From Mucilaginibacter geliditolerans (GTDB lineage Bacteria; Bacteroidota; Bacteroidia; Sphingobacteriales; Sphingobacteriaceae), in assembly GCF_014200495.1 (NCBI RefSeq), contig NZ_JACHBY010000002.1, forward strand, positions 930,001 through 994,000: a stretch of DNA of 64,000 bases, in the 5' to 3' direction. The position numbers were made by a program, and so were the translations under genes. The notes beneath the pieces were generated by a model, which saw only the letters and a program-made list of their open reading frames with translations, was not told the DNA's origin and made no database searches. The first letter of the stretch is position 1, and each line of letters begins with the position of its first letter. Shown in pieces: positions 15,860 to 35,995 of this stretch.

Positions 15860-15930
15860 ACATTGGTGGATAAGGATTGCAATATAATAATTATGAGCTA
15901 TGTTATATGACCGCCATAATGCAAAAAGAT

Positions 15931-16038: not shown

Positions 16039-16079
16039 ACATTACCAAAAGTCCGTTTCAGGCAAACTTTTGGTAATGT
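16039..16079 (-). terminator. long inverted repeat, probable terminator of the exporter gene
   Basis: Two perfect 14-base arms, ACATTACCAAAAGT (16039-16052) and ACTTTTGGTAATGT (16066-16079), enclose a 13-base loop. On the minus strand the stem is followed by CAGTTTTAATTTC, a weak T-rich tail. It lies 77 bases past the stop of the leftward MFS gene. A protein-binding site for the GH20 promoter is an alternative. Confidence 0.5.
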
Positions 16080-20181: not shown

Positions 20182-20183
20182 AA

Positions 20184-20633: not shown

Positions 20634-20639
20634 ACCTGC

Positions 20640-20831
20640 TTATGCTATTTTAACATTAACAGCGCCCGGGCCTTTTTTGCCTTCTTCCACATCAAAAGTA
20701 ACTTCATCGTTTTCACGGATAGTGTCGATTAACCCTGTAACGTGAACGAAGATTTCCTTGCCGCCATTACTTGGTGTGATAAAGCCGAAGCCTTTTGATT
20801 CATTAAAAAATTTAACTGTTCCTGTTGCCAT
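20640..20831 (-). CDS. cold-shock protein, CspA family
   Basis: This 63-residue single-domain nucleic-acid chaperone has MATGTVKFFNESKGFGFITP as RNP1 and KEIFVHVTGL as RNP2, and ends with the usual glycine-rich strand. It is the first gene of a three-gene unit (Csp, long Csp, 79-residue protein). The start at 20831 is fixed by the family N-terminus; the longer frame up to 20944 is a different reading frame. The upstream gap is long enough for a cold-shock leader RNA. Confidence 0.95.
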   Translation of the reverse strand: MATGTVKFFNESKGFGFITPSNGGKEIFVHVTGLIDTIRENDEVTFDVEEGKKGPGAVNVKIA

Positions 20832-21204
20832 GATATATTTATAAGTAAGTGCGCAAGGTACTGTAAATTATCGGATAAAATGCTGTTAATTATCGGGCCA
20901 CAGCAACCTATTATTTCCCCTCTATTAAATAATGAAATTGCCAACCGGAGATTAGATGGCGATTAAACCATTGTTGAAGGAATAAAAGGCATAAAATACC
21001 AGGCGGCATTTGCATATAGAAAACTGACAATGCACCTTTTTAAGTATATTAATATTGATAACTCATAATTATATTAATAGAAATTTCAACCAAATTCCAG
21101 GTTGAAAAAATTAATCCATCATGATGCCCTAATACAGACCACAGACTAAATCGCATTTATTGAATACAATCGAAATTCAATATTTTTTATATTAAGGCTA
21201 GTAC
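20832..21204. other. intergenic region upstream of the cold-shock unit
   Basis: This 373-base AT-rich gap has no supported gene. It probably holds the promoter and untranslated leader of the cold-shock unit on the minus strand. AATTATCGG occurs twice near 20866-20896. A short hairpin at 21084-21107 may end the leftward winged-helix gene. Confidence 0.5.
21084..21107 (-). terminator. possible terminator of the winged-helix gene
   Basis: TTTCAACC (21084-21091) and GGTTGAAA (21100-21107) form a perfect 8-base stem with an 8-base loop. On the minus strand TTTCTATTAATAT follows. It lies about 100 bases past the stop of the 101-residue gene. The stem is short and only half G/C. Confidence 0.4.
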
Positions 21205-21510
21205 TTATTGACTAGTCCTGTTACCTAGCGGGCTGTACAATACCTTTTGGGCATGTCCGTTTATGTTTTTCTGAACGAAACCATTTTCGATCATCCATTG
21301 CAATACCTGGTATACACTACTTTTGCTTACCCCGCTACAATACTGGCCGACATTATTCCGTAAAGTATCCAGATCAGTGGTTGCTTTCATTTTAAGGACC
21401 TGTTCAACAATGTACATTTTTTTGACAGATAATGGATACTTATGAAGCTCACAATACCCGGTGAAAGTTGCCGGTAATTCCGGTGCGGGGGAAAAATAAA
21501 ACGTTTTCAT
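21205..21510 (-). CDS. small winged-helix DNA-binding-like protein
   Basis: A 101-residue protein that I do not recognise by name. After a loop with two Cys or His residues (GYCELHKYPLS) comes a compact helical region: KKMYIVEQVLKMKATTDLDTL, then SGVSKSSVYQVLQWMIENGFV, then a short wing. The SSVYQVLQWMIENGFV helix resembles the recognition helix of Fur- and MarR-type winged helices, where TVYR.L..L.E.G is typical. It lacks the C-terminal metal-binding domain of Fur. It is divergent from an AraC regulator gene by 117 bases. Confidence 0.65.
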   Translation of the reverse strand: MKTFYFSPAPELPATFTGYCELHKYPLSVKKMYIVEQVLKMKATTDLDTLRNNVGQYCSGVSKSSVYQVLQWMIENGFVQKNINGHAQKVLYSPLGNRTSQ

Positions 21511-21627
21511 TCTATATCGTTATTTGAGAACCATTTAACCTGATTTCACAGTTTATTTTTACAAATGTCTGTAACAACATCACTGCATAAATTGTATATC
21601 TATGCTAAATACATGTAAATTTCCAAC

Positions 21628-22473
21628 ATGCCCCGACTAAAACAATATGAACCACTGGTGATCCATGATTTTGAGGAACAGCAATTTCATCTTCAAGCGC
21701 ATGCTCATACCTATTTCGAATTGATTTACCTGTACAAAGGCAGCGGCATTCATTGTTTAAATAACTGCAGGCTGAGCTATAAGGCCGGCGACCTCTTCCT
21801 GATCTGCCCGGAAGACGAACATTATTTCGAGATCAGGAAAAGCACGCGTTTTGTGTTTATTAAATGGACCGACAGTTATTTTATGAATGCAGGCAATCTC
21901 TATCCTAATACAGCTTCAGCTAATGACCCTGCACGGCTGATGCGTAACCGCCTGTTGAAAGAGAAAAAATTGATGTTTGATCCATCAACAGCACAGATAC
22001 TGAAAAATATTATAGAAAACATCATTACTTATCAGTACCGGAAAGATATCAGTACTTCTCCCCTGGTCTTTTATCAGATCGCATCTATTTTGGCTATGAT
22101 TAGAGAGCTGCTAATCAACATGGAGGCCCCTATAGCCTTGGAAAATCCTGACCAGGAGCAACTGGTTACTTACCTGCATCAGCATATTTATGATCCCCGC
22201 AGTATACAGATCCAATCCATTGCCAGCCATTTTAATATCGCTCCAAATTATTTCAGCGCCTATTTCAGGCGGTGTTTTGGCACCAGCTACCGTGAATATG
22301 TTGATAATTATAAAACAGGACTGATAGAAAAGCGAATTGAGCAAGGGCACCTGAGTATAAAGCAAATTGCCGCAGAATTTGGCTTTACCGATGAGAGTCA
22401 TTTTTCCAATTTCTTTAAAAAGAAATTCCATATGTCCCCAAGACTATACCGTCAGAATAAGAATAGAGATTAG
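21628..22473 (+). CDS. AraC family regulator with N-terminal cupin
   Basis: This 281-residue regulator has an arabinose-binding cupin domain (HDFEEQQFHLQAHAHTYFEL, then the AGDLFLICPEDEH turn). The C-terminal region has two helix-turn-helix motifs: SIQIQSIASHFNIAPNYFSA, and LSIKQIAAEFGFTDESHFSN followed by FFKKKFHMSPRLYR. The cupin suggests a sugar ligand. The gene is directly upstream of, and collinear with, a GH39-like hydrolase, and is its likely regulator. Confidence 0.92.
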   Translation: MPRLKQYEPLVIHDFEEQQFHLQAHAHTYFELIYLYKGSGIHCLNNCRLSYKAGDLFLICPEDEHYFEIRKSTRFVFIKWTDSYFMNAGNLYPNTASANDPARLMRNRLLKEKKLMFDPSTAQILKNIIENIITYQYRKDISTSPLVFYQIASILAMIRELLINMEAPIALENPDQEQLVTYLHQHIYDPRSIQIQSIASHFNIAPNYFSAYFRRCFGTSYREYVDNYKTGLIEKRIEQGHLSIKQIAAEFGFTDESHFSNFFKKKFHMSPRLYRQNKNRD

Positions 22474-22663
22474 GTCATTAAGTAGCATAAAGGGTCGATA
22501 AGCGACATAATTCCCTCCCCTGTTTCCAACAGATGAATTTCAAAGTTTGAAAACAATAATTATTTAATGTTATTTAAACACTTATACTTCTTTTTTCTTT
22601 TCTTTACATTATAAACCTGACCAGAAAAAAAAATTCCTGCATAATTTATTAATAGTCAATTCC

Positions 22664-24343
22664 ATGAAACCTATTTATTTATTGTTGTTAGTACTGATGT
22701 TACCGGGCATGAATGCCTCCGCGCAAAACGTACCGGCGGTTATCCACGTAAATCTTGAGCAAACAAAGGGCGAAATGAAGCCCATTTGGGCATGGTATGG
22801 CTATGACGAACCCAACTTTACATATATGAAGGATGGCCGCAAGCTGCTTACCGAGCTTGCCGCTTTAAGCCCGGTACCAGTATATGTACGTACCCATAAC
22901 CTGCTCACCTCTGGTGATGGCATTCCTGCTTTGAAATGGGGATCAACAAATATTTATACTGAGGATGCGCAGGGGAATGCGATATACAATTACCATATAA
23001 CTGACAGTATATTTGATACCTATATAAAACGGGGCATGAAACCTTTGGCACAGATCGGCTTTATGCCGGAGGCATTATCGACCCACCCCCAACCCTACCA
23101 GCACCACTGGAAACCCGGTGTTGATTATGGCAAGATTGAGACCGGCTGGGCTTATCCGCCCAAAGACTATAAAAAATGGGAAGAGCTGATCTATCAATGG
23201 GTAAGCCACTGCATAGCCCGCTATGGAAAAAAGGAGGTTGAAAGCTGGTATTGGGAGGTTTGGAATGAACCAAATGGCGCTTACTGGAAAGGTACAGTAC
23301 CGGAATTCTACAAACTTTATGATTACGCCGCCGCCGGTGTTAAACGCGCGCTGCCTACAGCCCGTGTTGGCGGGCCCGATGTAACAGGCGGTGCAGAAAA
23401 ATGGCTCGGCGGCTTTTTAAAACATTGCTTAACCGATACTAATTACGTAACGGGTAAAATAGGTTCACCGCTTGACCTGGTGCTTTTCCATGCCAAGGGT
23501 TCGCCGAAGGTGATAAACGATACGGTGGTGATGGGCATAAGGCAACAACTACGTGATATTAATGGCCATTTTAAAGAGATCAACTCTTTTGCTGAACTTA
23601 AGAATATACCTATTGTTATTGGTGAGTCTGACCCGGAGGGCTGTGCTGCCTGCGGGATGGCCACTAATCCCGAAAATGCCTATCGCAACGGCACCATGTA
23701 TTCCAGTTATACCGCGGCTGCATTGGCCCGGATATACGATTTAAAAGATATGTACAATGAAAACCTGATAGGTGCGGTTAACTGGTCGTTTGAGTTTGAG
23801 AACCAGCCCTGGTTTGCAGGTTACCGTGATCTGGCTACCAATGGCGTTGATAAACCTGTGTTAAATATTTTCCGCATGCTGGGTATGATGAAGGGTGAAA
23901 GGGTTGCAGTTATCAGCAACCGTGCATACAACATGCAAACCGTGCTTGATTCCAGCATTCGCGGTAAGCAAACCGACATAGGCGGCCTTGCGGCAAAGGA
24001 TAAAAAATCGGCAACGGTACTGGTATGGAACTATTCGGATAAGGACAAACAAAGCGCGGGAGAACCGGTAAGCATAAATGTAGATGGTATACCAGTAGAA
24101 ATAACCAGCGTTAATGTAACTGAATACAGGGTTGATGAAACGCATAGTAACTCCTATACCGCCTGGAAAAACATGGGGTCGCCGCAACAACCTACTGCAA
24201 AGCAGATAGCTATACTTGAAAAAGCAGGGCAATTACAAACCATAGGTAAACCGGCTCAGCTAAAAGTAAAAGCAGGCTCGGTAAATATTAATGTTTCGTT
24301 ACCGCAACAAGGTGTATCCTTACTGGTTATAAATTACCTGTAG
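22664..24343 (+). CDS. exported GH39-like glycoside hydrolase
   Basis: This 559-residue secreted enzyme has a signal peptide at about 1-21 (ending ASAQ). A TIM barrel carries WEVWNEPNG with the probable acid/base E202, and VIGESDPEGC with the probable nucleophile E321, the arrangement of clan GH-A family 39 (beta-xylosidase, iduronidase). A beta-rich C-terminal domain follows, as in GH39 xylosidases. Unusually, the nucleophile strand is followed by a Cys pair (CAAC, 327-330). Substrate is not certain. The start at 22664 keeps the signal peptide. An AraC regulator lies 190 bases upstream. Confidence 0.8.
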   Translation: MKPIYLLLLVLMLPGMNASAQNVPAVIHVNLEQTKGEMKPIWAWYGYDEPNFTYMKDGRKLLTELAALSPVPVYVRTHNLLTSGDGIPALKWGSTNIYTEDAQGNAIYNYHITDSIFDTYIKRGMKPLAQIGFMPEALSTHPQPYQHHWKPGVDYGKIETGWAYPPKDYKKWEELIYQWVSHCIARYGKKEVESWYWEVWNEPNGAYWKGTVPEFYKLYDYAAAGVKRALPTARVGGPDVTGGAEKWLGGFLKHCLTDTNYVTGKIGSPLDLVLFHAKGSPKVINDTVVMGIRQQLRDINGHFKEINSFAELKNIPIVIGESDPEGCAACGMATNPENAYRNGTMYSSYTAAALARIYDLKDMYNENLIGAVNWSFEFENQPWFAGYRDLATNGVDKPVLNIFRMLGMMKGERVAVISNRAYNMQTVLDSSIRGKQTDIGGLAAKDKKSATVLVWNYSDKDKQSAGEPVSINVDGIPVEITSVNVTEYRVDETHSNSYTAWKNMGSPQQPTAKQIAILEKAGQLQTIGKPAQLKVKAGSVNINVSLPQQGVSLLVINYL

Positions 24344-24561
24344 GCTTTAACTTGAGCTTTCAGGTAATCAGTCTTTTTTCACTAATATTTATGCTTCTTT
24401 TAATAACAAAATTTAGGCTGACCATATCTCCCGTCATCCTGAATTTTTCATGCACTTTACATTCGGTTTTCAAATGTTAAAATTATGTTAAATAAGGCTT
24501 TTTCATACTAACTACAGAATCTCATTCTATTATTGTAGTAATGATATTCTAAAAACATAGG

Positions 24562-24594
24562 TTAATCGATACAATTGGTTCAATTATCGATTAA
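24562..24594. promoter_or_regulatory. 33-base palindrome before the thioredoxin-ApbE operon
   Basis: TTAATCGATA (24562-24571) and TATCGATTAA (24585-24594) are perfect 10-base arms. Inside them ATTG and CAAT around GTT extend the symmetry. The element ends 36 bases before the thioredoxin ATG. It is a strong operator candidate for the operon. No T-run follows, so a terminator is unlikely. Confidence 0.6.
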
Positions 24595-24630
24595 TTATTT
24601 ATAAGAAAAAACATAAACATATTTTTATAT

Positions 24631-25068
24631 ATGAAATTTCTAATTATTCTTTTTTCTGTCATCCTCTCAGCAAATGTTACCTGGCTGGGTGATTTTAGTC
24701 AGGCTAAAACAGAAGCATCCCAATCACATAAACTTATACTGATAAATTTTTCAGGATCAGACTGGTGCGGCCCTTGTATACGTGAACGAAAAGAAATATT
24801 GGAAAATGATGCGTTTGAAAGTTTCGCTTCAGATCACCTGGTATTGGTAAGGGCCGATTTTCCAAGGCAAAGTAAAAATCAGCTGAGTAAAGAACAGGTA
24901 AAGCTTAATGAGGCATTAGCAGATAAATACAATCCCGATGGCAAATTTCCATATACCCTTTTAATTGATGAAAATGGTAAGGTATTAAAGGATTGGGACG
25001 GGTTTCCAAATGAATCGCCTGAAAATTTTGTAGCACAAATAGCCACATTTATACATGCAGCAAACTGA
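24631..25068 (+). CDS. exported thioredoxin-like protein
   Basis: This 145-residue thioredoxin-fold protein has an N-terminal hydrophobic segment (MKFLIILFSVILSANVTWLG) that fits a signal peptide or anchor. The redox motif CGPC lies at 46-49, in GSDWCGPCIRER. The family cis-proline is in KFPYTLLID. It is likely periplasmic. It is the first gene of a four-gene operon with ApbE, DUF4266 and DUF3570, and overlaps apbE by 14 bases. It may keep thiols of the Cys-tailed lipoprotein or another partner reduced (inference). Confidence 0.9.
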   Translation: MKFLIILFSVILSANVTWLGDFSQAKTEASQSHKLILINFSGSDWCGPCIRERKEILENDAFESFASDHLVLVRADFPRQSKNQLSKEQVKLNEALADKYNPDGKFPYTLLIDENGKVLKDWDGFPNESPENFVAQIATFIHAAN

Positions 25069-26011
25069 AATTACTAATTCACTAATACAAAAGCGCGCAC
25101 TTAAGTTAATGGGTAACCGCTTTGAATTAAGTGTAGTTAGTGACAATGAAATATGGGGCCAGCAATGTATTGACGTCGCCATAGCTGAAATAAGCAGGAT
25201 TGAAAAACTTTTAACAACGTTTAGCGACGATAGCCAAACCAATGCTATAAACCGTAATGCGGGTATAGCTGCTGTAACAGTTGACAGGGAAGTGTTTGAT
25301 CTTATAAAAAGATCAATAAAAATAAGTGAGCTAACGCAAGGGGCCTTTGATATTACTTATGGCTCGATTGATAAGCGGTTGTGGAATTTTGATCAAACCA
25401 TGACGAGCCTGCCTGATAAGGCAACAGCAAAAAAAATGGTCCGGCTTATAAACTTCAGAAACATAGTGTTAGATGAAGAAGCCTGTACTATTTTTTTAAG
25501 TGAAAAAGGTATGCGCATTGGTTTTGGTGGTATTGGCAAGGGATATGCCGCCGAACGTGCTAAGCATGTAATGAAACTAAATGGTGTTGAAAGCGGTGTG
25601 GTAAATGCCTCGGGCGACTTAAATACATGGGGACTACAGCCCAATGGTAAGCCCTGGACAGTTGGCATTGCTAACCCTGATTCATCAAGTGAGATATTCT
25701 CTTATATAAATATTACGGATATGGCCGTAGCAACATCGGGCAATTATGAAAAGTTTATTATGGTTGATGGAAAGAAATACTCCCATACCATAAACCCGCG
25801 TACTGGCCTGCCTGTAACCGGTATTAAAGCAGTAACCATTATAACTACCAATGCTGAGATTGCCGATGCTATGGCCACACCGGTAATGATTATGGAAATT
25901 AATGCCGGGCTCGATATGATCAATCAAATGAAAAACATTGAAGCCGTTATTATTGATGATAACAATAAGATATATACTTCAAAAAATATAAAAATTAATA
26001 CCCCTATATAA
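25055..26011 (+). CDS. apbE: FAD:protein FMN transferase (ApbE family)
   Basis: This 318-residue enzyme moves FMN from FAD to a Thr or Ser of partner proteins as a phosphoester. Family motifs are visible: MGNRFELSV near the start, INRNAGI, FDITYGSIDKRLWNFD, the glycine-rich FGGIGKGYAAERA, NASGDLNTWG and the C-terminal HTINPRTGLP with the metal site. There is no clear signal peptide at the chosen ATG, although many ApbE proteins are exported. The start overlaps the thioredoxin stop by 14 bases and the gene ends in a TAATG junction with the DUF4266 gene, showing tight coupling. Confidence 0.93.
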   Translation: MQQTEITNSLIQKRALKLMGNRFELSVVSDNEIWGQQCIDVAIAEISRIEKLLTTFSDDSQTNAINRNAGIAAVTVDREVFDLIKRSIKISELTQGAFDITYGSIDKRLWNFDQTMTSLPDKATAKKMVRLINFRNIVLDEEACTIFLSEKGMRIGFGGIGKGYAAERAKHVMKLNGVESGVVNASGDLNTWGLQPNGKPWTVGIANPDSSSEIFSYINITDMAVATSGNYEKFIMVDGKKYSHTINPRTGLPVTGIKAVTIITTNAEIADAMATPVMIMEINAGLDMINQMKNIEAVIIDDNNKIYTSKNIKINTPI

Positions 26012-26232
26012 TGATAACTAAAACGATGAAAGTATTAGCCTGCTTACTTATAGCAATAGGATGCACTTCATGTGTTCATTTAAAAGAATACCAGAAAAGC
26101 AGGATCAATGATTCAGAAATGGTTTTAAGTAACCGGAAGGTTGAAAAAAACGAATTGAATTTTCAATCATACCGGGAGGCGGCCTCTGGCGCAAACGCAG
26201 GTAAAACAGGCGGAGGCTGTGGCTGTAACTAA
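26011..26232 (+). CDS. DUF4266 small lipoprotein with Cys-rich tail
   Basis: A 73-residue protein with a lipoprotein signal (LLIAIGCTSC, acylation at C18 or C21) and the DUF4266 pattern. LKEYQKSRINDSEMVL is followed by SYREAASGANAG and the conserved-looking tail GGGCGCN, with Cys at 70 and 72. The ASGAN stretch resembles the SGAT core of ApbE flavinylation sites but lacks the acceptor Thr in the usual place. Function is not established. Its place between ApbE and DUF3570 suggests that it is part of an extracytoplasmic redox complex. A start at 26026 is possible. Confidence 0.85.
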   Translation: MITKTMKVLACLLIAIGCTSCVHLKEYQKSRINDSEMVLSNRKVEKNELNFQSYREAASGANAGKTGGGCGCN

Positions 26233-26234
26233 TT

Positions 26235-27521
26235 ATGAGGAAGATATTTTTATCTGTAGTTGGCTTTTCAATGATATGCCGGCTTAATGCCCATGCACAG
26301 GTTAAGCAGGATAGCGTTAGTAATAAACCAGCATTTAGTTTATATAATACCCCGGATCAGGATTCCACACAATATAATCCCCGGAAATTACGATTAGACG
26401 AAGTTGATTTTGTATCCAGTTACTATTCCCAAAACGGCGATCATTCGGCTGTTACAGGTGGCATTGGGACAGAAAAGGTGACCGATTTTGCAAATAGCAT
26501 TAACCTGAACTTTGTTTGGACAAACCAACATCAGAACAAAAACACACTGGCTGTTGGTTTAGGGTTTGATGCCCACACCGCCGCTTCGCAAGCCTTTGTT
26601 TCAAAAACCGGCGCATCCAGCCCAAATGGTACCAGGCTTTACCCATCATTGGATTGGACAGTTGAAAATGCTAAAACCGGTAATACATTTGGAGTAGGCA
26701 CTTATTACTCAAGTGAATATAATTATCAGTCGCTGGGTGCCGATTTACATTTCTCGGTTAAAACTGATAATAAGGATGGTGAGTTCAGCGCAAAATTACA
26801 GGGGTATTTTGATCATGTAAAGTTAATTTATCCATCCGAATTTATTCCGGTAAGTACTACCACTACTACAACCACATCGGCCAGCTCATCAGGGTCTGGT
26901 GGTGGCGGTAAAGCAAGTATACCGAGCAGTCCACGAGAAACATATTCTGCAGCATTTGGCTATACGCAGATCATTAACTCAAGGCTGCAGATCGCCTTCC
27001 TGGCAGATGTTGTAGGGCAAAATGGCTATTTAAGCCTGCCTTTTCACCGGGTGTACTTTACAACAGGCAAGGATACTATTGAGAAACTACCTTCATCACG
27101 CTTTAAGCTGCCACTTGGTTTCAGGCTCAATTATTTCCTGGGTGATAACATCATCTTAAGATCGTATTACCGCTATTATTTGGATAATTGGGGTATCAGA
27201 TCGAACACGGCTAACCTTGAAATAGCTTACAAGGTATCGCCATTCTTTTCTATATCGCCGTTCTACAGGTATTATAACCAATCGGCAGCACGGTATTTTG
27301 CGCCTTATGAACAGCATAGTCCAACCGATCAGTATTACACCAGTAATTATGAATATGCAAAATTCAGCAGCCAGTTTTTTGGTGTAGGGTTCAGGATAGC
27401 ACCGCCAAAAGGGGTATTCGGCTGGCAGGGCTTACATGAGTTAGAGATCAGATACGGTCATTACACACAAACCACAGATCTGGTATCGGATGTGGTATCG
27501 TTAAGTCTTGGATTTAAATAA
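26235..27521 (+). CDS. DUF3570 outer-membrane protein
   Basis: A 428-residue protein with a signal peptide (ending NAHAQ) and the alternating aromatic beta-strand pattern of an outer-membrane barrel, ending SLSLGFK. It matches DUF3570, whose members are found next to ApbE and DUF4266. A low-complexity Thr/Ser/Gly loop lies at about 207-227 (VSTTTTTTTSASSSGSGGGG), probably an exposed linker. It starts 2 bases after the DUF4266 stop. A passage or anchor for the lipoprotein is inference. Confidence 0.88.
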   Translation: MRKIFLSVVGFSMICRLNAHAQVKQDSVSNKPAFSLYNTPDQDSTQYNPRKLRLDEVDFVSSYYSQNGDHSAVTGGIGTEKVTDFANSINLNFVWTNQHQNKNTLAVGLGFDAHTAASQAFVSKTGASSPNGTRLYPSLDWTVENAKTGNTFGVGTYYSSEYNYQSLGADLHFSVKTDNKDGEFSAKLQGYFDHVKLIYPSEFIPVSTTTTTTTSASSSGSGGGGKASIPSSPRETYSAAFGYTQIINSRLQIAFLADVVGQNGYLSLPFHRVYFTTGKDTIEKLPSSRFKLPLGFRLNYFLGDNIILRSYYRYYLDNWGIRSNTANLEIAYKVSPFFSISPFYRYYNQSAARYFAPYEQHSPTDQYYTSNYEYAKFSSQFFGVGFRIAPPKGVFGWQGLHELEIRYGHYTQTTDLVSDVVSLSLGFK

Positions 27522-27529
27522 TATAGAGG

Positions 27530-27580
27530 AATGTTGAGGTTATCTGGCAATAACATCCAGATCAACCTCAACATTTTTAT
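27530..27580 (+). terminator. intrinsic terminator whose hairpin lies inside the yceI coding end
   Basis: AATGTTGAGGTT (27530-27541) with ATCTGG (27542-27547) pairs with CCAGAT (27557-27562) and AACCTCAACATT (27564-27575), with one bulged C and a 9-base loop. The stem is 18 pairs and is followed by TTTAT. It ends the thioredoxin-apbE-DUF4266-DUF3570 transcript. Most of the stem is at the same time the last 12 codons of the convergent yceI gene. Confidence 0.8.
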
Positions 27581-28085
27581 CAATTGAATTATCAGAGCCT
27601 ACATTATACTCCAGCCTGTTTAATTGAAAACTCCCTTTAAATTCATAACCACCATTTTGGGCTTTAGCTGTAAACGGGAATGATATGTTTTTGGTGACGC
27701 CTTTCATAGTAAGTGTACCGGTGAAAGTATAAGTATTCTCACCAGATGCCTTGGTAACAGTCTGCGATTTTATAATTATCGATGAATACTTCTTTACGTC
27801 GAAATAACTTTCCTCCTTTAAATGGTTATCCCTCATCCCAATACCTGAATTAATAGTTTCTGCAGCTATTGATACATCAAATACAGCTTGCGTAAGATTA
27901 GTCGGATCAAATATTACGGTCCCTTTCAAACCTTTAAATGTACCTGTAACCGTACTTTTAAATATCATTTGATGTGACACTTTAAACTGCACCGTGGAGC
28001 TTTGTTCAACAGGCGTATAATGCTGCGCAAAAACAATATTTACTGAACAGATAAATAGTGCTATAATAATTGAATAAGCCTTCAT
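27540..28085 (-). CDS. YceI family periplasmic lipid-binding protein
   Basis: A protein of about 181 residues starting MKAYSIIIALFICSVNIVFA at 28085. The frame is open to 28154, but the 23 extra residues precede a good signal peptide and overlap a small gene. After the leader, YTPVEQSSTVQFKVSHQM and the lipocalin-like barrel (GLKGTVIFDP, then FTGTLTMKGVTKNISFPF) are diagnostic. YceI proteins bind polyisoprenoid or quinone-like lipids in the periplasm and often accompany cytochrome b561, as here. It may supply or sequester the quinone for the cytochrome. Confidence 0.93.
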   Translation of the reverse strand: MKAYSIIIALFICSVNIVFAQHYTPVEQSSTVQFKVSHQMIFKSTVTGTFKGLKGTVIFDPTNLTQAVFDVSIAAETINSGIGMRDNHLKEESYFDVKKYSSIIIKSQTVTKASGENTYTFTGTLTMKGVTKNISFPFTAKAQNGGYEFKGSFQLNRLEYNVGSDNSIDKNVEVDLDVIAR

Positions 28086-28123
28086 ATTGATTTGATTAAT
28101 ACAGTTACCTATGTATAATTGAA

Positions 28124-28210
28124 TTAAGGCAAAAAAGTTATAATTAAAAGCCATATAATAATGATTATAACTGCTGCAATCCAGATAAATGGAATTAAAA
28201 GCCTTTTCAT
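28124..28210 (-). CDS. 28-residue single-span membrane peptide
   Basis: A short open frame between the cytochrome b and yceI genes encodes MKRLLIPFIWIAAVIIIIIW and then LLIITFLP: two basic residues and then one continuous hydrophobic span. AGGAG directly precedes the ATG, which is close for a ribosome site. It starts 16 bases after the cytochrome stop and its stop lies 38 bases before the preferred yceI start. Size and setting resemble small accessory subunits of membrane cytochromes (CydX-like in style, not in sequence). Only composition and position support it. Confidence 0.5.
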   Translation of the reverse strand: MKRLLIPFIWIAAVIIIIIWLLIITFLP

Positions 28211-28225
28211 CTCCTAAGTATTTAA

Positions 28226-28891
28226 TTACCCCCCGTTGATCATGTCTGATACTATTCCTTTTTTATCTTTTTTACGCTCAGCTAAAAACACACCGGCAAT
28301 ATGAGCAATAATAAAAGCCAGGATCAGATACATACAAAAGCCGTGAACACTTTTAACCGGATGATGTATGGATCTAAGAAAGGGCACATCATCATCAAAA
28401 GCAAGTGATAAACCGGTTACCACCATAATAATTAACAGGCAATAAAACAGTGCATATATTACATTAACAACAAACTCATGCAAAGCCTCTTGCCGGTCCT
28501 TTTTTGTTGCTTTAAACTGAGCGAAGGCACTTTTTAATCCTCTGATAAATTTCTGATCAGCCAACTGAAAGATCTCTAATACAAGGCGAAACAGTAACAG
28601 TCCTGCAAGGCAGTAACCAAAATAGGTATGTATAGCCCAAACCTTATCCTCAAGTGCACCGGCAACTGAGCGGCTCAGGCCATTATCAACACCTTTTGTT
28701 TGTTGTATCCTTGTTTTTACAAGGTTAGTAATTGCATGTTTATCGGTTATAGTGGAATTTATAAGCACGGTTATAAGTGACCCGCTTATAATAATCATGT
28801 TTAACCAATGCCATAAACGCAGGCTTGCCGAATACTTTTTAACTTTAGTTAGATGCTCAGGATCTTTATGTGTTGGTTCTATAGTTGTCAT
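28226..28891 (-). CDS. cytochrome b561-type membrane protein
   Basis: A 221-residue integral membrane protein with four helices. Haem-ligand candidates are H28 (LRLWHWLN, helix 1), H88 (VWAIHTYFGY, helix 2), H183 (KSVHGF) and H197 (IIAHIAG, helix 4). This is the di-haem b-type layout of the bacterial b561 / Ni-Fe-hydrogenase cytochrome b group. A charged loop rich in Lys and Gln joins the two halves (about 120-138). It should pass electrons between quinol and a periplasmic partner. It follows the VIT gene by 10 bases and precedes a 28-residue peptide and yceI. Confidence 0.9.
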   Translation of the reverse strand: MTTIEPTHKDPEHLTKVKKYSASLRLWHWLNMIIISGSLITVLINSTITDKHAITNLVKTRIQQTKGVDNGLSRSVAGALEDKVWAIHTYFGYCLAGLLLFRLVLEIFQLADQKFIRGLKSAFAQFKATKKDRQEALHEFVVNVIYALFYCLLIIMVVTGLSLAFDDDVPFLRSIHHPVKSVHGFCMYLILAFIIAHIAGVFLAERKKDKKGIVSDMINGG

Positions 28892-28901
28892 TATTAATTT
28901 A

Positions 28902-29387
28902 TTAAGTACCTACATCGCCTAAATAAATACCAAGCAGGAATACAATTCCGCCACCTACAATAACCTGTAGTATAGTTTTAACCAATGGTGTTTTCATAAA
29001 TTTGTAACGAATAAACGCTATAACCAGTAATTCACATATAACTACTATGTATGCAAAATGCAGGGCGGTATGTAAATCGGGTATCAAAAATGGCAAAGTG
29101 TGGAGCATTCCACCCAATGCGGTTGCAAATGCCGTAATACCTCCCCTAACCAGCGGACTACCGCGACCTGTAACTGTACCATCATCTGATAACGCTTCAG
29201 CTAAACCCATGCTAATTCCGGCCCCTAATGAAGCTGCCAGGCCTACATAAAACGCCTTAATTGGTTGATGCGTTAAACCTGCCGTGGCAAATATGGGAGC
29301 CAGTGTTGAAACAGAGCCGTCCATTAATCCTAAAAGTCCGGGTTGAACTTTTTGTATAACGAATGTGGCTTTTGTACTTCTACTCAT
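28902..29387 (-). CDS. VIT1/CCC1-type metal transporter (stand-alone erythrin-VIT domain)
   Basis: A 161-residue membrane protein. [20 protein letters not shown] followed by [16 protein letters not shown] is the signature of the VIT domain that in MbfA is fused to a ferritin-like erythrin domain. Here the erythrin part is missing and the protein starts at the VIT domain. VIT/CCC1 proteins move Fe2+ or Mn2+ out of the cytoplasm. Five hydrophobic helices are visible. It is the first gene of the leftward VIT-cytochrome-peptide-YceI unit, divergent from the two-component system. Confidence 0.88.
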
Positions 29388-29412
29388 AGTTTATATGTCT
29401 AAATGTAATTGC

Positions 29413-29515
29413 AGAATTTGAAGCAATTCTGTAGTACTATTATAAATATTATTATTTATAATGTTTATCAATATCCTCAGCTCATATATTAAAAAAAAAT
29501 CTAACGTTATATTTG
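29413..29515. promoter_or_regulatory. divergent control region of the VIT unit and the two-component system
   Basis: Two palindromes stand here. CAGAATT (29412-29418) pairs with AATTCTG (29425-29431), and ATTATAAATA (29439-29448) with TATTTATAAT (29453-29462). TATATTTG at 29508-29515 fits the Bacteroidota -7 box for the response-regulator gene, 14 bases before its GTG. The palindromes are candidate response-regulator sites. Confidence 0.45.
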
Positions 29516-29528
29516 ATAAAAAAGCAAA

Positions 29529-30203
29529 GTGAAACTCCTTATAATAGAAGATGAGCAAGCGCTTCGCGAAAATATAACCACTTATTTTAATGAGGATGGT
29601 AATATTTGTGAAAGCTGTGCCAACCTTTCAAGTGCAATTGATAAGCTATCTAATTACAATTATGATTGCGTATTACTTGATATCGGCCTGCCTGATGGTG
29701 AAGGTTTTGGGGTGCTGAGTTTTTTAAAAAAGGAAATGAAAGATGAGGCAGTACTCATTATATCGGCCCGAAACTCATTGGATGATAAAATTAAAGGCCT
29801 GAACATAGGAGCTGATGATTATTTAATAAAGCCTTTTCATTTAGCGGAGTTGAAAGCCCGGGTTGCCTCCGTTTATCGGCGAAAAGCTGCGAACAGTAAT
29901 AACAACCTGATTTTTAATGAGATTACAATTAATTTACTGGGCAGAACGGTAGATGTTAATAACACCCCGGTTATACTTACCCGAAAGGAATATGATATGC
30001 TATTGTACTTTATTGCCAACAAGGGGAAGGTAATAGCTAAAAATGCCATTGCCGAGCATTTATGGGGCGATGAAATGGATATGCACAATAACTTTGATTT
30101 TATTTATACGCATATTAAAAACCTAAGAAAAAAACTATTAGATGCCGGTTGCCATGATTATATCAACTCTATATATGGCATAGGCTATAAATTTAAAGCA
30201 TAA
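29529..30203 (+). CDS. OmpR/PhoB-type response regulator
   Basis: A 224-residue regulator. The receiver domain has the acidic pair E7-D8, phospho-acceptor D51 (LLDIGLPDGE) and K101 (LIKPFH). A winged-helix output domain with ILTRKEYDMLLYFIANKGKV and HIKNLRKKL follows. The start is GTG at 29529, the only start that keeps the beta-1 strand KLLIIED. The kinase gene begins immediately after the stop codon, so the pair is one unit. Divergence from the VIT-cytochrome unit and closeness to the ApbE operon make those the likely targets. Confidence 0.95.
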   Translation: MKLLIIEDEQALRENITTYFNEDGNICESCANLSSAIDKLSNYNYDCVLLDIGLPDGEGFGVLSFLKKEMKDEAVLIISARNSLDDKIKGLNIGADDYLIKPFHLAELKARVASVYRRKAANSNNNLIFNEITINLLGRTVDVNNTPVILTRKEYDMLLYFIANKGKVIAKNAIAEHLWGDEMDMHNNFDFIYTHIKNLRKKLLDAGCHDYINSIYGIGYKFKA

Positions 30204-31454
30204 ATGAAACTCTCTGCCCATTACAATAAAGCAAGTATAATTATTACTATATCTGTATTGTTTATAGGGGGTATTATCTATTTTTTTACAATAAACTACA
30301 TTGCTAAAAATCAGCTCGACCTTAACCTGATAGAAGAAATTGATGGTGTTAAAGATTATATTAAGGTCAATAATAAATTGCCTAAACAGGTTGATTTTGA
30401 TGAGGACCTGGTAATATTTGTAAAAACCGACAAACAAGAGCTTAACAGGCGCTTTTTTGATACTACATACAATAACCCTAAAGAGAAGAAAAAGGAACCG
30501 GGAAGAGCTGTTTCATGCCTGGTATCATTAAACGGCAGTAATTATTTAACTACGCTAATCGTATCAAGGGAGGATACGGAATACCTGGTGCAGATCATCG
30601 GCTTAATAACGCTTGCCTTATCAGTTGGGTTATTGCTCACGCTCTTCATAACCAGCAGGTACATTTTAAACGGTTTATGGAAACCGTTTTATAAAACACT
30701 TACCGAATTAAAATCCTTCAATATTTCAGATGATAAAAGTCTCAATTTAAAAAGCACTAAAGTTGATGAGTTTAATGAATTGAATAACACTGTTCAGGCC
30801 ATGTCATTAAAAGCAAAAAACGACTTTCAAACTTTAAAGGAGTTTACAGAAAACGCTTCACATGAAATGCAAACACCATTGGCTGTAATTACCTCAAAGC
30901 TGGATACATTAATACAGGATGAAACTTTAAAAATTGAGCAGTACGAACAAATCAATGATATTTATGGTGCCACAAACAAATTAGCAAGGCTAAATCAATC
31001 ACTATTATTGCTGGTGAAAATTGAAAACAACCTGATTGACGATATTGAACTATTAAGGCTTGATATTTTAATTGAAGAAAAGGTAAAGCAGTTTTATGAG
31101 TTAATAAACGACAAACAAATAAAAGTAGCAACTCACCTATCAGCCAAAGAAATATCAGCCAGCAAGTATTTGATTGATATATTGCTTAACAACCTGTTCA
31201 GTAATGCTATAAGACACAATATACCGGAGGGTAAACTGATCATTACTTTAGATATTGATCAGCTCGTTTTCAAAAACGATGGCTTACCCCAACCTTTTAA
31301 CATGGACAACATGTTCGACAGGTTTAAAAAAGGTAATGAATCAGAGGGCACCGGCTTAGGTTTAGCTATAGTGAAAAACATATGCACCCTTAATAATTGG
31401 GGCATTACCTATTTTCACGAAGCTTCCATGCATGTGTTTCAGATCGATTTTTAA
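30204..31454 (+). CDS. sensor histidine kinase
   Basis: A 416-residue membrane kinase. Helix 1 lies at about 11-30, then comes a periplasmic sensor of about 100 residues with one Cys (C105), and helix 2 lies at about 131-151. The dimerisation domain carries H220 in ENASHEMQTP. The ATPase domain has the N-box NNLFSNAIRHN and the G2-box GTGLGLAIVKN. The D-x-G-x-G G1-box is reduced to LVFKNDG, seen also in other small Bacteroidota kinases. The sensor has no recognisable ligand motif; redox, metal or envelope stress are options. It partners the regulator immediately upstream. Confidence 0.94.
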   Translation: MKLSAHYNKASIIITISVLFIGGIIYFFTINYIAKNQLDLNLIEEIDGVKDYIKVNNKLPKQVDFDEDLVIFVKTDKQELNRRFFDTTYNNPKEKKKEPGRAVSCLVSLNGSNYLTTLIVSREDTEYLVQIIGLITLALSVGLLLTLFITSRYILNGLWKPFYKTLTELKSFNISDDKSLNLKSTKVDEFNELNNTVQAMSLKAKNDFQTLKEFTENASHEMQTPLAVITSKLDTLIQDETLKIEQYEQINDIYGATNKLARLNQSLLLLVKIENNLIDDIELLRLDILIEEKVKQFYELINDKQIKVATHLSAKEISASKYLIDILLNNLFSNAIRHNIPEGKLIITLDIDQLVFKNDGLPQPFNMDNMFDRFKKGNESEGTGLGLAIVKNICTLNNWGITYFHEASMHVFQIDF

Positions 31455-31459
31455 ACTAA

Positions 31460-34400
31460 TTACAGGTCCTTTAAATTATCATTTGGCATCCTGTCAATCA
31501 GTTTATTATACGGATCAATACCTGCGCGTTGTGGCTTACCTTTTACTATGATATTAAACGTATGCTGCCCGGCAGTTAATTTATACTTTTTAAGATACAG
31601 CTGATTTGCTATTGTCCTGCCATCTTTATTTTTACCATCGGCCGCAAAAATGCCTATATCTATGTAGTCATTCATTTTTTTATCAATCACGTCATTACCT
31701 TTTCCATCAATCCAAACCTTATTAACATTAACCGTTAATGTTACCTGGTAATTGTTTTTTCCGAGCGGTTTAGCTTTAACTTCGGTTACCTTATTGTCGT
31801 ATAAAGTGATCTTTTTCCAGGTATCGGTAAGATAATATTGCAGGGAATCAGGTACATGCTTTTGCAAATAGCTATACAGATCGTTATTACCTGCATATGG
31901 CGGTTTATTTTTAAAAGCATAAGCATTTTTAAAATCACGCAGAGCGGAATTTAGGCTATCCTCTCCCATCAGATCGCGCAGTCCATATAGCACAACGGCT
32001 GCTTTGCCCTGGTATTCAAACCATTGATCAGCTGTTATAAGCGGATGCTCTTTATCCTCCATCCTATGCCTAATAAACAAATAAAACCATAACTGATCTA
32101 AAACAATGTAACGCATATTGACCGCACCGTACTTCTTTTCGGCCATAACTAGTGCGCTATAACCGGCTAACCCCTCAGGGATCACTATTGAACCAATTGT
32201 GTTATTTGGCGCAACCTGGAAACGCCACCACTGCTGGGCTAAAACATTTATTGTGTTAAAATAGCAATAGTCAGTTTGGTTAGGGTCGGTAAAATCGGCA
32301 TTCCAGGCGTGTTGCTCGGCATAAGCCGAAAGCGTTGTCATTGATGCAGCACGGGGTCCATAAATTGATGATTCAGCCAGGCGGATATCTGTAAATGGGA
32401 AGTTACCATATGCCTTATTAAAATAGCGCAAACCATCCTTATAAGCAGCCATAAAACGCCCCAGGTTGGCATTATGGTCAGGATGATAATAGATATTGAT
32501 ATTTACCGGATGACCAAGGTTTACGGTATCATGCATAATAGCATAACGGGCAGATAAAATACCCAAAGGCGCATACATGCCGGGCTTATCCTGCACATAA
32601 TGAAAATAATTCCGGCCGCCTTGTTTCCATTGCTTAACCAGCTCGCCTGGTGCAATAGCTGTTTGATCTCCGGATGTGCTAACAGTTATGTCAAATTTCA
32701 ACAGATCAGCTGCCTTACCTGCTTTTAATCCACTAATACCTTCGGGATCATTTTGAGGGATATCATTCTCCGTTTTTACAGGCAGATGTCTTTTTTTACG
32801 CTCATACGGGCTGTCTAACTCATCGTCGTCGTCATAACCCAGACCAGGTAATTCCGGACTTAAAAACGTTCCATTATGCAGCAGATCCTTTGAGTAAAGC
32901 CCATTGCTGAAGCCATTATAACTTATTGCCGAATTAATTTCCAACACGGTAGAATCACCGGGAGCTAATGCCTTTTGAAACTGGTACAAACGAAACTCAG
33001 CCGTATCATTCTTAGGCCTGAACCAGTTGAACATACCACGGGGATAAAGTAATGGCGAGGTAAAAGAAATTAATTTGCCATTCTGTTTTATCGAGTAATC
33101 AGATAACTCATCGCCATCAAGCAATAGTTTTTCAATCGGCTTGTTGGTTTTATTGGCTATGGTTACAAAAGCGTGTGTATATTCTTCCAGTTTATCGGGG
33201 TACAGGTCGGTATGCAGCTCCATGCGTGTTACCTTTGGTAAGGGTAGCAATGAATATTTTTTAAGCTGCCGCTCATACATTTCTGCCCGGTTATCTTCTT
33301 CACCCTTTGTTAAGTAGTTATTGAGGTAGCTTACATTATAATAATTATAAGCACCTATTGATAAAAACGCTAAAAACACTAAAACTGTAATTATCAGGGT
33401 GCTGGTATCAAAACGTTCTTTAACCAGTTGCCATCTTTCTTTAATGCCTGAAGTTACTCCCCGGTAATAATATAATCCAGAAACAATAACTAATACACCT
33501 GCAAAAAGCAACCAGAATAGGTGAAACGAATATACCGCCTTTGCCATATGCCCTATCCCATCCATATCAGAGAAACCATACCACGGCGTGTACGAATACA
33601 TTAAAAGGTTATAGTTAAACGTGCCTGTATCTTCCAAAAAGAAGAAGATGATCCATAGAAAAATGGCTACTGCATGCGCGCCAAACTTATTATTTAAGGT
33701 TACATGTATCACATAACAAAAGGCAACCATATCCAATAAACGGGGCAGTATCAATGTAAATATATACGTGAAATACACCAGGAAATGAAAATGATAAAAC
33801 CCTTTTATAATTTGGATCGGCAAACCCAAGATCAAGGGAATTAACGCCAGAAAGAAAGCAAAGACAAGCAATGCAACGAATTTTGATCCATTTAACACCC
33901 AGTTTGGCGGTGGCAGCGAATCATTTATAAATGCAAATCGGGTTACCCTGTCGCGGTGGAGTATTTCGCCGGTATAAAATAGGATGATAAAAAAGATAAA
34001 AAACAGGAAGTTGCCATTATAGGTATCTAAAAGCATTACTGTACGCGGAAAATCGGCTACCCCGTTATTGCCGTCACCCATCCAAAGCACAAAGGCCAGG
34101 AAAGTCATGCCGCTTAATAGTATGATCCAGAAATAATTATCGCGAATGATGTTACTGATCTCCATCCGGGTCAGTTTCCATAAGGTGTTACGCTTGTACG
34201 AACCGGTGAAGCTGATACTTACCTTTGGTGAACCTTGTTTAAGCTTTTCGGTTGACCGTTCGCCAATAGCGGCCTTATCCCTTTTACCACTGAAAAATCT
34301 TTCAAAACTAAAAGTGAAATAAGTATAAAGCAGCACTATTAAACCTACTCCTGTCCAAATTATGCGGTTAAGTAAAAATGAACCGGTTATGGATATTAGC

Positions 34401-35095
34401 GTAGTATTTTGCTGGATGGAATTTGCATTCATTGTTTGCAGCCTCACGCCATTTAAACCAAAGGGATCTGCAAGATTTATTACCGTTTCATTATTGGTGC
34501 GGCTAAGAAAAACCATTGATAGGAAATACCCCAGAAATAACAGTATACCTCCGCTATAGATCACTTTTACATTACGGGTAATAGCCACCAGACCAAAAAA
34601 CAGCGACGATGTAAATATCAGGTTGGGTAAAGCGATGGTTAAAAACGGATGCAGGTAATAAATTAACCGATTTGGCCCATATTGCGCCGGATCCCTCCAT
34701 CCCATAGCCGGGCCCAGCCATGTGCCTGCATAAGCACCAATAATAATGGCGCTCGCTATAAAAAGCATAATAGCGAATGAGCCAAAATACCGTCCCCAAA
34801 AATAGCCTGCCTTTGTTATAGGATAGGTTAAATAATAATCCTTGGTATTGTATTCAATATCGCGGTATAAAGCATTGCCCATTATTGATGATGATACCAC
34901 CATCATGAGCATGGTTATGCCACCACACCACATAGCCAGTATAAATGGCGCATTAATATGCTCTTTTTCAGCTAAAGGCAGTGACCCTGTGGCGAATGTG
35001 CCAACCGTAAATATTAAGGCGGCGGCAAAGTATAGGTACATTGCTGGCCTGCGGACCCTGTTTTGGATCTCGAATAAAAATATTTTCCAGAACAT
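31460..35095 (-). CDS. ABC transporter permease fused to a degenerate M1-peptidase-like domain
   Basis: A 1211-residue protein. The first 580 or so residues are a two-part ABC-2-type permease with about 12 helices. The rest is an extracytoplasmic M1 aminopeptidase-like module. The zinc motif HExxH is replaced by NVLAQ (residues 950-954, followed by QWW), and the third-ligand region keeps E974 in PEGLAGYSAL. Later parts such as GKAAVVLYGLRDLMGEDS match the M1 fold. The zinc ligands H, E and H are thus lost, so I do not expect peptidase activity. It follows its ATPase gene by 11 bases and ends the ABC operon. Substrate is unknown. Confidence 0.88.
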   Translation of the reverse strand: MFWKIFLFEIQNRVRRPAMYLYFAAALIFTVGTFATGSLPLAEKEHINAPFILAMWCGGITMLMMVVSSSIMGNALYRDIEYNTKDYYLTYPITKAGYFWGRYFGSFAIMLFIASAIIIGAYAGTWLGPAMGWRDPAQYGPNRLIYYLHPFLTIALPNLIFTSSLFFGLVAITRNVKVIYSGGILLFLGYFLSMVFLSRTNNETVINLADPFGLNGVRLQTMNANSIQQNTTLISITGSFLLNRIIWTGVGLIVLLYTYFTFSFERFFSGKRDKAAIGERSTEKLKQGSPKVSISFTGSYKRNTLWKLTRMEISNIIRDNYFWIILLSGMTFLAFVLWMGDGNNGVADFPRTVMLLDTYNGNFLFFIFFIILFYTGEILHRDRVTRFAFINDSLPPPNWVLNGSKFVALLVFAFFLALIPLILGLPIQIIKGFYHFHFLVYFTYIFTLILPRLLDMVAFCYVIHVTLNNKFGAHAVAIFLWIIFFFLEDTGTFNYNLLMYSYTPWYGFSDMDGIGHMAKAVYSFHLFWLLFAGVLVIVSGLYYYRGVTSGIKERWQLVKERFDTSTLIITVLVFLAFLSIGAYNYYNVSYLNNYLTKGEEDNRAEMYERQLKKYSLLPLPKVTRMELHTDLYPDKLEEYTHAFVTIANKTNKPIEKLLLDGDELSDYSIKQNGKLISFTSPLLYPRGMFNWFRPKNDTAEFRLYQFQKALAPGDSTVLEINSAISYNGFSNGLYSKDLLHNGTFLSPELPGLGYDDDDELDSPYERKKRHLPVKTENDIPQNDPEGISGLKAGKAADLLKFDITVSTSGDQTAIAPGELVKQWKQGGRNYFHYVQDKPGMYAPLGILSARYAIMHDTVNLGHPVNINIYYHPDHNANLGRFMAAYKDGLRYFNKAYGNFPFTDIRLAESSIYGPRAASMTTLSAYAEQHAWNADFTDPNQTDYCYFNTINVLAQQWWRFQVAPNNTIGSIVIPEGLAGYSALVMAEKKYGAVNMRYIVLDQLWFYLFIRHRMEDKEHPLITADQWFEYQGKAAVVLYGLRDLMGEDSLNSALRDFKNAYAFKNKPPYAGNNDLYSYLQKHVPDSLQYYLTDTWKKITLYDNKVTEVKAKPLGKNNYQVTLTVNVNKVWIDGKGNDVIDKKMNDYIDIGIFAADGKNKDGRTIANQLYLKKYKLTAGQHTFNIIVKGKPQRAGIDPYNKLIDRMPNDNLKDL

Positions 35096-35106
35096 AATTG
35101 CTTAGT

Positions 35107-35994: not shown

Positions 35995-35995
35995 A

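What the first reader, a model, noticed from the sequence alone, without database searches (positions are those of the whole stretch)
24562..31454. Compact extracytoplasmic redox island: Trx-ApbE-DUF4266-DUF3570 facing YceI-peptide-cytochrome b561-VIT, with its own two-component system
Seen: an overlapping rightward operon of thioredoxin, ApbE, a Cys-tailed DUF4266 lipoprotein and a DUF3570 barrel. A convergent unit carries YceI, a 28-residue membrane peptide, a di-haem b cytochrome and a VIT transporter. A divergent response regulator and kinase follow. Known: ApbE attaches FMN covalently to exported proteins, b561 moves quinol electrons, and VIT moves Fe or Mn. Inferred: electrons pass from quinol through the cytochrome and flavin or thiol carriers to an outer-membrane acceptor, switched by metal or redox state. 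No ordinary ApbE target (NqrC, RnfG, FMN-bind domain) is nearby, so the target may be new.
Basis: partly seen in the sequence, partly recalled or inferred. Interest (0 to 1): 0.75.

Follow-up and report, generated by a model that had tools for sequence, protein, structure and literature searches.

The report
Switchable flavin barrel with cytochrome partner
A soil bacterium carries a regulated set of genes that appears to pass electrons through its cell envelope using an outer-membrane barrel with two flavins chemically attached; the core is a known kind, but its cytochrome partner, its dedicated switch and the likely place where the flavins are attached look new.

Summary
The genes are real and mostly named correctly. 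The core (thioredoxin-ApbE-DUF4266-DUF3570) is known: Meheust et al. 2021 described it and showed DUF3570 is flavinylated, so 'the target may be new' fails. The cytochrome and two-component half is the interesting part. Of 80 relatives of this b561, 48 have DUF3570 within the held flanks and 53 regulator plus kinase. DsbD, the published inner-membrane partner, is near DUF3570 in 5 of 76 loci and b561 in 15, none with both, though 2 of the 80 b561 loci hold DsbD. A direct-repeat box with 11-bp period precedes both gene sets (36 of 46 and 31 of 42 regions, 0 of 350 controls), also in the window: one regulator probably drives both. DUF3570 models as a 16-strand outer-membrane barrel with both flavin motifs in one loop on the predicted outer side. 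Unexpectedly, ApbE has no signal peptide (0 of 33 in the family) and the genome's other ApbE lacks an active-site motif: flavins may be attached in the cytosol before export. The 28-residue peptide is unsupported. New variant of a known kind.

The parts
24501..24517 (+). Predicted response-regulator box TTTCATACTAACTACAG (half-sites 11 bp apart) upstream of the thioredoxin-ApbE-DUF4266-DUF3570 operon
   Evidence: site ends 113 bp before the Trx start codon; same pattern in 31 of 42 such regions (window included), 0 of 350 control intergenic regions
24631..25068 (+). Exported thioredoxin-like protein with WCGPC motif
   Evidence: PF13899; N-terminal hydrophobic stretch and motif seen in the sequence
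25055..26011 (+). ApbE FAD:protein FMN transferase, intact active-site motif (HTINPRTG), no signal peptide or lipobox
26011..26232 (+). DUF4266 small lipoprotein with C-terminal CGC tail
   Evidence: CGC tail in 63 of 63 rows, window counted twice
26235..27521 (+). DUF3570 outer-membrane beta-barrel, predicted carrier of two covalent FMN
26577..26588 (+). First flavinylation motif TAAS (residues 115-118) in loop between strands 3 and 4
   Evidence: A117 and S118 invariant in 40 sequences
26607..26618 (+). Second flavinylation motif TGAS (residues 125-128), same loop
27540..28085 (-). YceI-family periplasmic protein; likely true start at 28085 rather than 28154
   Evidence: start matches M. frigoritolerans homologue
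28226..28891 (-). Di-haem b cytochrome of the b561/Ni-hydrogenase cytochrome b family
28902..29387 (-). Half-length VIT-family membrane protein resembling the membrane half of MbfA
29418..29434 (-). Predicted response-regulator box CTACAGAATTGCTTCAA upstream of the VIT-b561-YceI run
   Evidence: same pattern in 36 of 46 RR/b561 divergent regions (window included), 0 of 350 controls
29529..30203 (+). OmpR-family response regulator (receiver plus winged helix)
30204..31454 (+). PorY-subfamily sensor histidine kinase
   Evidence: NF052314, 421.7 bits, cut-off 350

Best explanation
A two-component-system-controlled envelope redox chain of the DUF3570 flavinylation type, in which a b561 cytochrome is the usual inner-membrane partner where DsbD is not nearby. 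When the kinase fires, the regulator binds an 11-bp direct-repeat box in front of both operons (inferred from the shared box). ApbE, which has no export signal, attaches FMN to two serines of DUF3570 in the cytosol (inferred). DUF3570 is then exported through Sec and folded into the outer membrane as a 16-strand barrel with both flavins on one loop at the outer face or dipping into the lumen (predicted structure, orientation inferred). Electrons are exchanged between the menaquinone pool (b561), dithiols of the thioredoxin and the CGC tail of lipoprotein DUF4266, and the two FMN, ending on an acceptor outside or in the outer leaflet, probably a redox metal such as Fe(III) or Cu(II) (inferred). 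VIT and YceI handle the metal and lipid or quinone side effects (inferred).
For: DUF3570 flavinylation at two sites by the cognate ApbE is experimental in Chlorobium luteolum, with overproduced protein found mostly in the pellet (PMC8238504, passages). Motif pairs occur in 65 of 76 DUF3570 sequences, shuffle mean 0.22. b561 is within 8.5 kb of DUF3570 in 15 of 36 family loci (14 of this subfamily, one fragment of another, L041), DsbD in 5 of 76 loci, none with both. From the b561 side DUF3570 is near 48 of 80 and RR plus HK near 53 of 80. The box is in 36/46 and 31/42 regions, 0/350 controls, with the 5-bp gap standing out; outside the window's genus it recurs in 8 of 24 family loci (my count), and a core lying on another contig than its b561/TCS (L056, genome G089) also has it. 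Models: 16 strands, all loops over 11 residues on the motif side (my reading of the strand lists); outer-membrane barrels match. ApbE signal peptide: 0 of 33 in the family, while Trx, DUF4266 and DUF3570 score as exported in 97/100, 101/105 and 110/128 rows (window counted more than once). The genome has only two ApbE and no FMN_bind protein, and the second ApbE lacks the H..NPRTG motif.
Against: No direct evidence for electron transfer by b561 in this chain. 21 of 36 family loci have no b561 within 8.5 kb, and none of the 40 other Bacteroidota/Chlorobi loci does, so it is not essential to DUF3570. Menaquinol (about -74 mV, recalled) is a poor donor to covalent FMN (-184 mV for one multi-FMN protein, passage in PMC12052999), so flow could be inward. 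The motif loop has pLDDT under 50. Genome G116 has the core without the box (L053). The two DsbD proteins elsewhere in the genome could still be donors. 19 of 80 b561 loci have neither DUF3570 nor TCS in the held stretch, 6 of them with full flanks.
Confidence: 0.45

Rival explanations
1. Envelope antioxidant island. b561 and YceI work like LcoA and BcnA, quenching lipid peroxyl radicals with quinol-derived electrons; VIT removes free iron; the DUF3570 barrel and thioredoxin repair or shield the outer membrane. Switched on by oxidative or metal stress.
For: b561 (LcoA) next to YceI (BcnA) protects Burkholderia envelopes from lipid peroxidation under tellurite, cold and peroxide (PMC9113575, passages). 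The window's VIT-b561-YceI are one same-strand run behind one box. The nearest relative keeps TCS-VIT-b561-YceI without DUF3570 within 10 kb (L130).
Against: YceI is found with this b561 in only 5 of 80 loci, whereas DUF3570 is in 48. The box sits before the flavin operon as well, which is not needed for the LcoA-BcnA model.
Confidence: 0.25
2. Metal resistance rather than respiration: the flavin barrel changes the redox state of Cu or Fe at the surface so that RND pumps, VIT and the regulator can keep metal out.
For: A protein of 1444-1469 aa that reads like a CusA/CzcA pump lies near DUF3570 in 12 of 77 loci and a full-length VIT in 13 of 77; 25 published clusters have VIT1.
Against: No RND pump among the island's products. 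The pump was identified by reading the sequence, not by a family search. The NCBIfam heavy-metal regulator model is far below cut-off (152 of 279 bits).
Confidence: 0.15
3. Neighbours without shared function: the b561-TCS unit merely lies beside the flavin operon.
For: The two units separate in some genomes (L053 and L118; L056 and L116; L130), and gene order varies.
Against: 48 of 80 linkage, concordant presence in the genus (10 of 13 sampled genomes with both, 3 with neither, by Pfam score), a common promoter box, and a thioredoxin beside b561 where it is missing from the core (genome G116, L053 and L118).
Confidence: 0.05

Closest known systems
DUF3570 flavinylation clusters ('DsbD systems'), Meheust et al. 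2021, PMC8238504
   Same: Thioredoxin-like PF13899, ApbE, DUF4266 with CXC tail and DUF3570 with two motifs; VIT in some clusters (passages read)
   Different: No DsbD nearby; b561, a PorY-like TCS and a shared promoter box instead; ApbE without signal peptide. The paper's main text holds no mention of b561, YceI or a histidine kinase; its supplements could not be read
LcoA-BcnA (cytochrome b561-YceI) anti-peroxidation pair, PMC9113575
   Same: Adjacent b561 and YceI genes
   Different: Coupled to a flavin barrel and a TCS; YceI was not found in the held stretch of 75 of 80 related b561 loci
PorXY two-component system of type IX secretion
   Same: Kinase scores over the NCBIfam PorY subfamily cut-off
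   Different: Partner is an OmpR-type regulator with Trans_reg_C domain, not PorX; no T9SS gene was identified among the products scanned
Iron exporter MbfA and VIT/CCC1 transporters
   Same: Membrane half aligns to MbfA 164-317; Pfam VIT1 over cut-off
   Different: 161 aa only, no ferritin-like N-terminal half; 27 of 80 related b561 loci hold a VIT of the longer type and 13 one like the window's (Pfam on one long member)
Cytosolic ApbE of Klebsiella and trypanosomatids (review PMC12052999, passages)
   Same: ApbE without signal peptide
   Different: The target named there for Klebsiella is a soluble fumarate reductase; here the target carries a signal peptide and models as an outer-membrane barrel

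Membership tests
DUF3570 flavinylation cluster (Meheust 2021) | ApbE with intact catalytic motif beside DUF3570 | tested here: met
   PF02424 271.6 bits; HTINPRTG present (motif recalled as active-site loop)
DUF3570 flavinylation cluster (Meheust 2021) | Two [S/T]GA[S/T]-like motifs in DUF3570 | tested here: met
   TAAS 115-118 (A in place of G, as in the TSAS of many relatives) and TGAS 125-128
DUF3570 flavinylation cluster (Meheust 2021) | DUF4266 with C-terminal CXC | tested here: met
DUF3570 flavinylation cluster (Meheust 2021) | DsbD in the cluster (285 published clusters; 316 published clusters lack it) | tested here: not met
   two DsbD in the genome, both on other contigs than the window. 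Membership is only of the DsbD-less set
DUF3570 flavinylation cluster (Meheust 2021) | Covalent FMN on the protein | not testable with these tools
   needs in-gel fluorescence or mass spectrometry
Extracytosolic (secreted) ApbE | Signal peptide or lipobox | tested here: not met
   four codons between the in-frame stop and ATG, no hydrophobic stretch; hydropathy criterion, not SignalP
LcoA-BcnA pair | b561 and YceI adjacent and same strand | tested here: met
LcoA-BcnA pair | Protects lipids from peroxidation | not testable with these tools
   needs mutants
PorXY system | PorY-type kinase | tested here: met
PorXY system | PorX-type regulator with PglZ-like C-terminal domain (recalled) instead of a winged helix | tested here: not met
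   Response_reg plus Trans_reg_C only
MbfA iron exporter | Ferritin-like domain plus membrane domain, NF045676 at cut-off 450 | tested here: not met
   221 bits, model positions 164-317 only

The most novel reading that the evidence does not exclude
Flavin is attached to the barrel in the cytosol by an unexported ApbE, and the FMN-bearing chain is threaded through Sec and the BAM machinery, so that two covalent flavins end up on an outer-face loop of an outer-membrane barrel: a haem-free electron port at the cell surface, fed or drained by a b561 cytochrome and dithiol carriers, and switched on by a dedicated two-component system.
Probability: 0.3. Interest if true: 0.85.

Novelty: new variant of a known kind. 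Interest (0 to 1): 0.6.

Why it matters
The function, electron donor and control of DUF3570 systems were left open in 2021; in the held library only that one paper names DUF3570 or DUF4266. This report supplies a candidate inner-membrane partner (b561) for clusters without DsbD, a regulator with a defined DNA box, which gives a handle on the inducing signal, and a structural prediction that puts both flavin sites on one outer-side loop of a barrel. If ApbE works in the cytosol here, a covalent cofactor would be carried through Sec and outer-membrane assembly, which runs against the usual picture of secreted ApbE acting on secreted targets.

Tried and rejected
Rejected: a new ApbE target (DUF3570 is the known one). 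Rejected: the 28-aa peptide as a conserved part (absent from L130; no homologue search was run for it). Rejected on recheck: 'b561 and DsbD never share a locus'; L148 and L153 hold both, and the sixth DsbD (L095) is an ApbE row with a weak thioredoxin-type match, so DsbD stands at 5 of 76. Considered: DUF4266 as a second flavin target; its SGAN-like stretch has no Ser/Thr at the attachment position in the 33 members printed, so unlikely. Tried without result: solved-structure sequence search for DUF3570 (0 matches at E<=1), Rfam over 20000-36000 (0 matches), papers holding both Mucilaginibacter and ApbE (0). In one search inverted-repeat patterns guessed from the window were not general (1 of 46 and 1 of 42); the direct repeat emerged from 7- and 8-mer enrichment in the same call, so the box was found post hoc, with relatives sharing ancestry and several genomes present in both locus sets. 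A weight matrix trained on the RR/b561 regions alone put 17 of 42 core upstreams above the 99th percentile of the controls. The wider-family check includes 24 loci outside the genus (8 with box) and 40 outside the family (0 with box). Genome-wide the two patterns match 20 and 27 times (reversed-pattern controls 5 and 7); 7 of 47 rows are not inside an ORF longer than 300 bp, two of them the window sites; L222 and L231 may be further targets and were not pursued. The b561 tree needs 5 changes of the 'linked to DUF3570' label, so linkage was gained or lost repeatedly.

Rows dropped or doubled: b561 fragments of L041 and L052 were left out of the tree. L069 (second ApbE) is in the 72 rows and left out of the group counts. 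L068 is a short copy of the window core: counted (77 loci) and in the 63 DUF4266 rows, dropped and from the DUF3570 count. The rows hold the window up to three times and some genomes twice. Of 77 genomes outside the window's family with DUF4266, regions of 36 were fetched (40 regions; of the 46 f17 genomes only 5). The three genus members without DUF3570 were classed by Pfam score alone; their b561 loci were not fetched.
Full report
What is there. Ten gene calls between 24562 and 31454 were checked with Pfam and NCBIfam. All but the 28-residue ORF match recognised families. The genome is a Mucilaginibacter: a scan with the b561 alignment returns mostly this genus, and the closest b561 (81%) is from M. 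frigoritolerans (L130).

The core is known. The operon thioredoxin-ApbE-DUF4266-DUF3570 was described in 2021 (PMC8238504; abstract and passages read): DUF3570 of Chlorobium luteolum is flavinylated by its ApbE at two [S/T]GA[S/T] sites; DUF4266 has a conserved CXC tail; 285 clusters hold DsbD and 316 with the four core genes do not; 25 clusters hold VIT1. The window DUF3570 has TAAS (115-118) and TGAS (125-128). In a 40-sequence alignment D112, A117 and S118 are invariant. All 63 DUF4266 rows (window counted twice) end in a CGC tail.

The second gene set. In the window's family DUF3570 occurs in 34 of 121 genomes. Neighbourhoods of 35 further loci were fetched and annotated with profiles made from the window genes. 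b561 lies within 8.5 kb of DUF3570 in 15 of 36 family loci (one, L041, a fragment of another b561 subfamily) and in 0 of 40 loci from other Bacteroidota and Chlorobi; full-length DsbD lies near 5 of 76, all in one family (f17), and none of these 76 loci has both. But in the larger b561 sample two loci, L148 and L153, hold b561, DUF3570 and DsbD together, so b561 is an alternative partner at most, not a strict replacement. Other recurrent neighbours, out of 77 loci including a short duplicate of the window: response regulator 28, kinase of the window's cluster 23, Rieske-type lipoprotein 27 (Pfam on one member), full-length VIT 13, and in 12 loci a protein of 1444-1469 aa that reads as a CusA-type pump (no family search). 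Seen from the b561 side, 48 of 80 named loci have DUF3570, 53 have RR and HK, 40 have both, 36 have a VIT and only 5 have YceI, 19 have neither DUF3570 nor TCS; among the 49 with at least 8 kb on each side the figures are 34, 39, 30, 26, 3 and 6. Among 121 family genomes, 20 of 21 with this b561 subfamily have DUF3570, against 14 of 100 others (subfamily drawn by my profile, counts entered by hand, genomes related). In the genus, 10 of 13 sampled genomes have both and 3 have neither (by Pfam score). In genome G116 the core lacks its thioredoxin, and a thioredoxin stands instead beside the distant b561 and TCS (L053, L118).

One switch for both. Comparing the RR/b561 divergent regions (46, window included) and the regions upstream of the core operon (42, window included) with 350 other intergenic stretches of the same loci, a direct repeat of half-sites CT[AT]CAG and [CT]T[TA]CA with 11-bp period appears in 36, 31 and 0; of the spacings 2-11 bp tested, the 5-bp gap gives 35 and 31, the next best (11 bp) 6 and 2. 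This is the form of box expected for OmpR-type regulators (established knowledge). In the window it lies at 24501-24517, 113 bp before thioredoxin, and at 29418-29434, before VIT-b561-YceI. It also occurs in 13 of 36 family core upstreams (10 of 16 with b561 labelled in the locus, 3 of 20 without), including a core on another contig than its b561/TCS (L056), and in 0 of 40 outside the family. It is absent before the separated core of G116 (L053). Genome-wide the patterns match 47 times in two searches, mostly inside ORFs; the two window sites are the clearest promoter-placed ones, but two others (L222, L231) also lie before genes.

Where the flavin is attached. The window ApbE begins MQQTEITNSLIQKRALKLMGNRF, with four codons back to the in-frame stop: there is no room for a signal peptide. 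By a hydropathy measure 0 of 33 family ApbEs, 13 of 30 in other families of the class, 3 of 3 in f15/f34 and 0 of 5 in f17 have one, while the exported partners score positive in 97/100, 101/105 and 110/128 rows. The tree needs 5 changes of this label, at least 4 by well-supported branches (quick tree). The genome has two ApbE; the other lacks the H..NPRTG motif that the 71 other rows keep in some form. It has no FMN_bind protein. So if DUF3570 is flavinylated in this organism, the modification most likely happens before export. This is inference. It agrees with the published co-expression, in which the signal-truncated Chlorobium protein was modified although most of it was in the pellet. In the listings I saw (22 of 23 papers; 15 of 146) and the review passages no report of a cytosolic ApbE with an exported target appeared; the library lacks most subscription papers.

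Mechanism and rivals. I favour an envelope electron chain with b561 and dithiols on one side and the two barrel flavins on the other, used on a redox metal or similar acceptor. Direction is open: menaquinol is not a strong enough donor for typical covalent FMN. The strongest rival takes the b561-YceI pair at face value as an anti-peroxidation device (PMC9113575, passages), which suits L130 but not the 75 of 80 loci in which no YceI was found.

Literature limits. Papers seen: PMC8238504 (abstract and passages), PMC11334425 (passages and one section; DUF3570 is not mentioned), PMC12052999 (passages), PMC9113575 (passages), PorXY papers (listing only). Supplements were not readable, so I cannot exclude that the b561 neighbourhood is in the 2021 tables.

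Noticed in passing
L126:7913-8836 (own genome, contig C3): Second ApbE paralogue lacking the H..NPRTG motif, near a 297-aa barrel-like protein, a small exported protein and its own response regulator and kinase: perhaps a decayed or repurposed sister of the island.
   Followed up: partly
L031-L063, e.g. L036:7483-7926: A Rieske-type lipoprotein directly upstream of the thioredoxin in many relatives (27 of 77 loci) but not in the window; window-type DUF3570 loci seem to lack it.
   Followed up: partly
L038, L044, L064, L116, L131 and others: A 256-aa predicted outer-membrane protein (no Pfam match for the one member scanned) occurs in 41 of 80 b561 loci, often next to b561.
   Followed up: partly
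L041, L052, L075, L076, L078, L081, L086, L088, L090, L094, L096, L099: A 1444-1469-aa protein that reads like a CusA-type pump with a TolC-like tail, often with a CusB-like partner, close to the DUF3570 cluster: hint of a copper or other metal link.
   Followed up: no
L148:6180-7877, L153:9287-10978: Genuine-looking DsbD in loci that also hold b561 and DUF3570; one genome (L153) has two DUF3570 genes in the same stretch.
   Followed up: partly
window 5818-11460, 40969-46151, 58480-63145: Three SusC/SusD pairs flank the island, with GH20 (13490-16048) and GH39 (22664-24343) enzymes: glycan-use loci around an unrelated redox island.
   Followed up: no
window 31460-35095: A 1211-aa protein with membrane segments and a peptidase-like C-terminal half (my reading: M1-peptidase fused to an ABC permease), in a run with an ABC ATPase; a protein of the same length followed by one of 295 aa occurs near b561 and VIT in L165.
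   Followed up: no
window 19057-19725: Flavodoxin_2 / NADPH-dependent FMN reductase-like gene 5 kb before the island.
   Followed up: no
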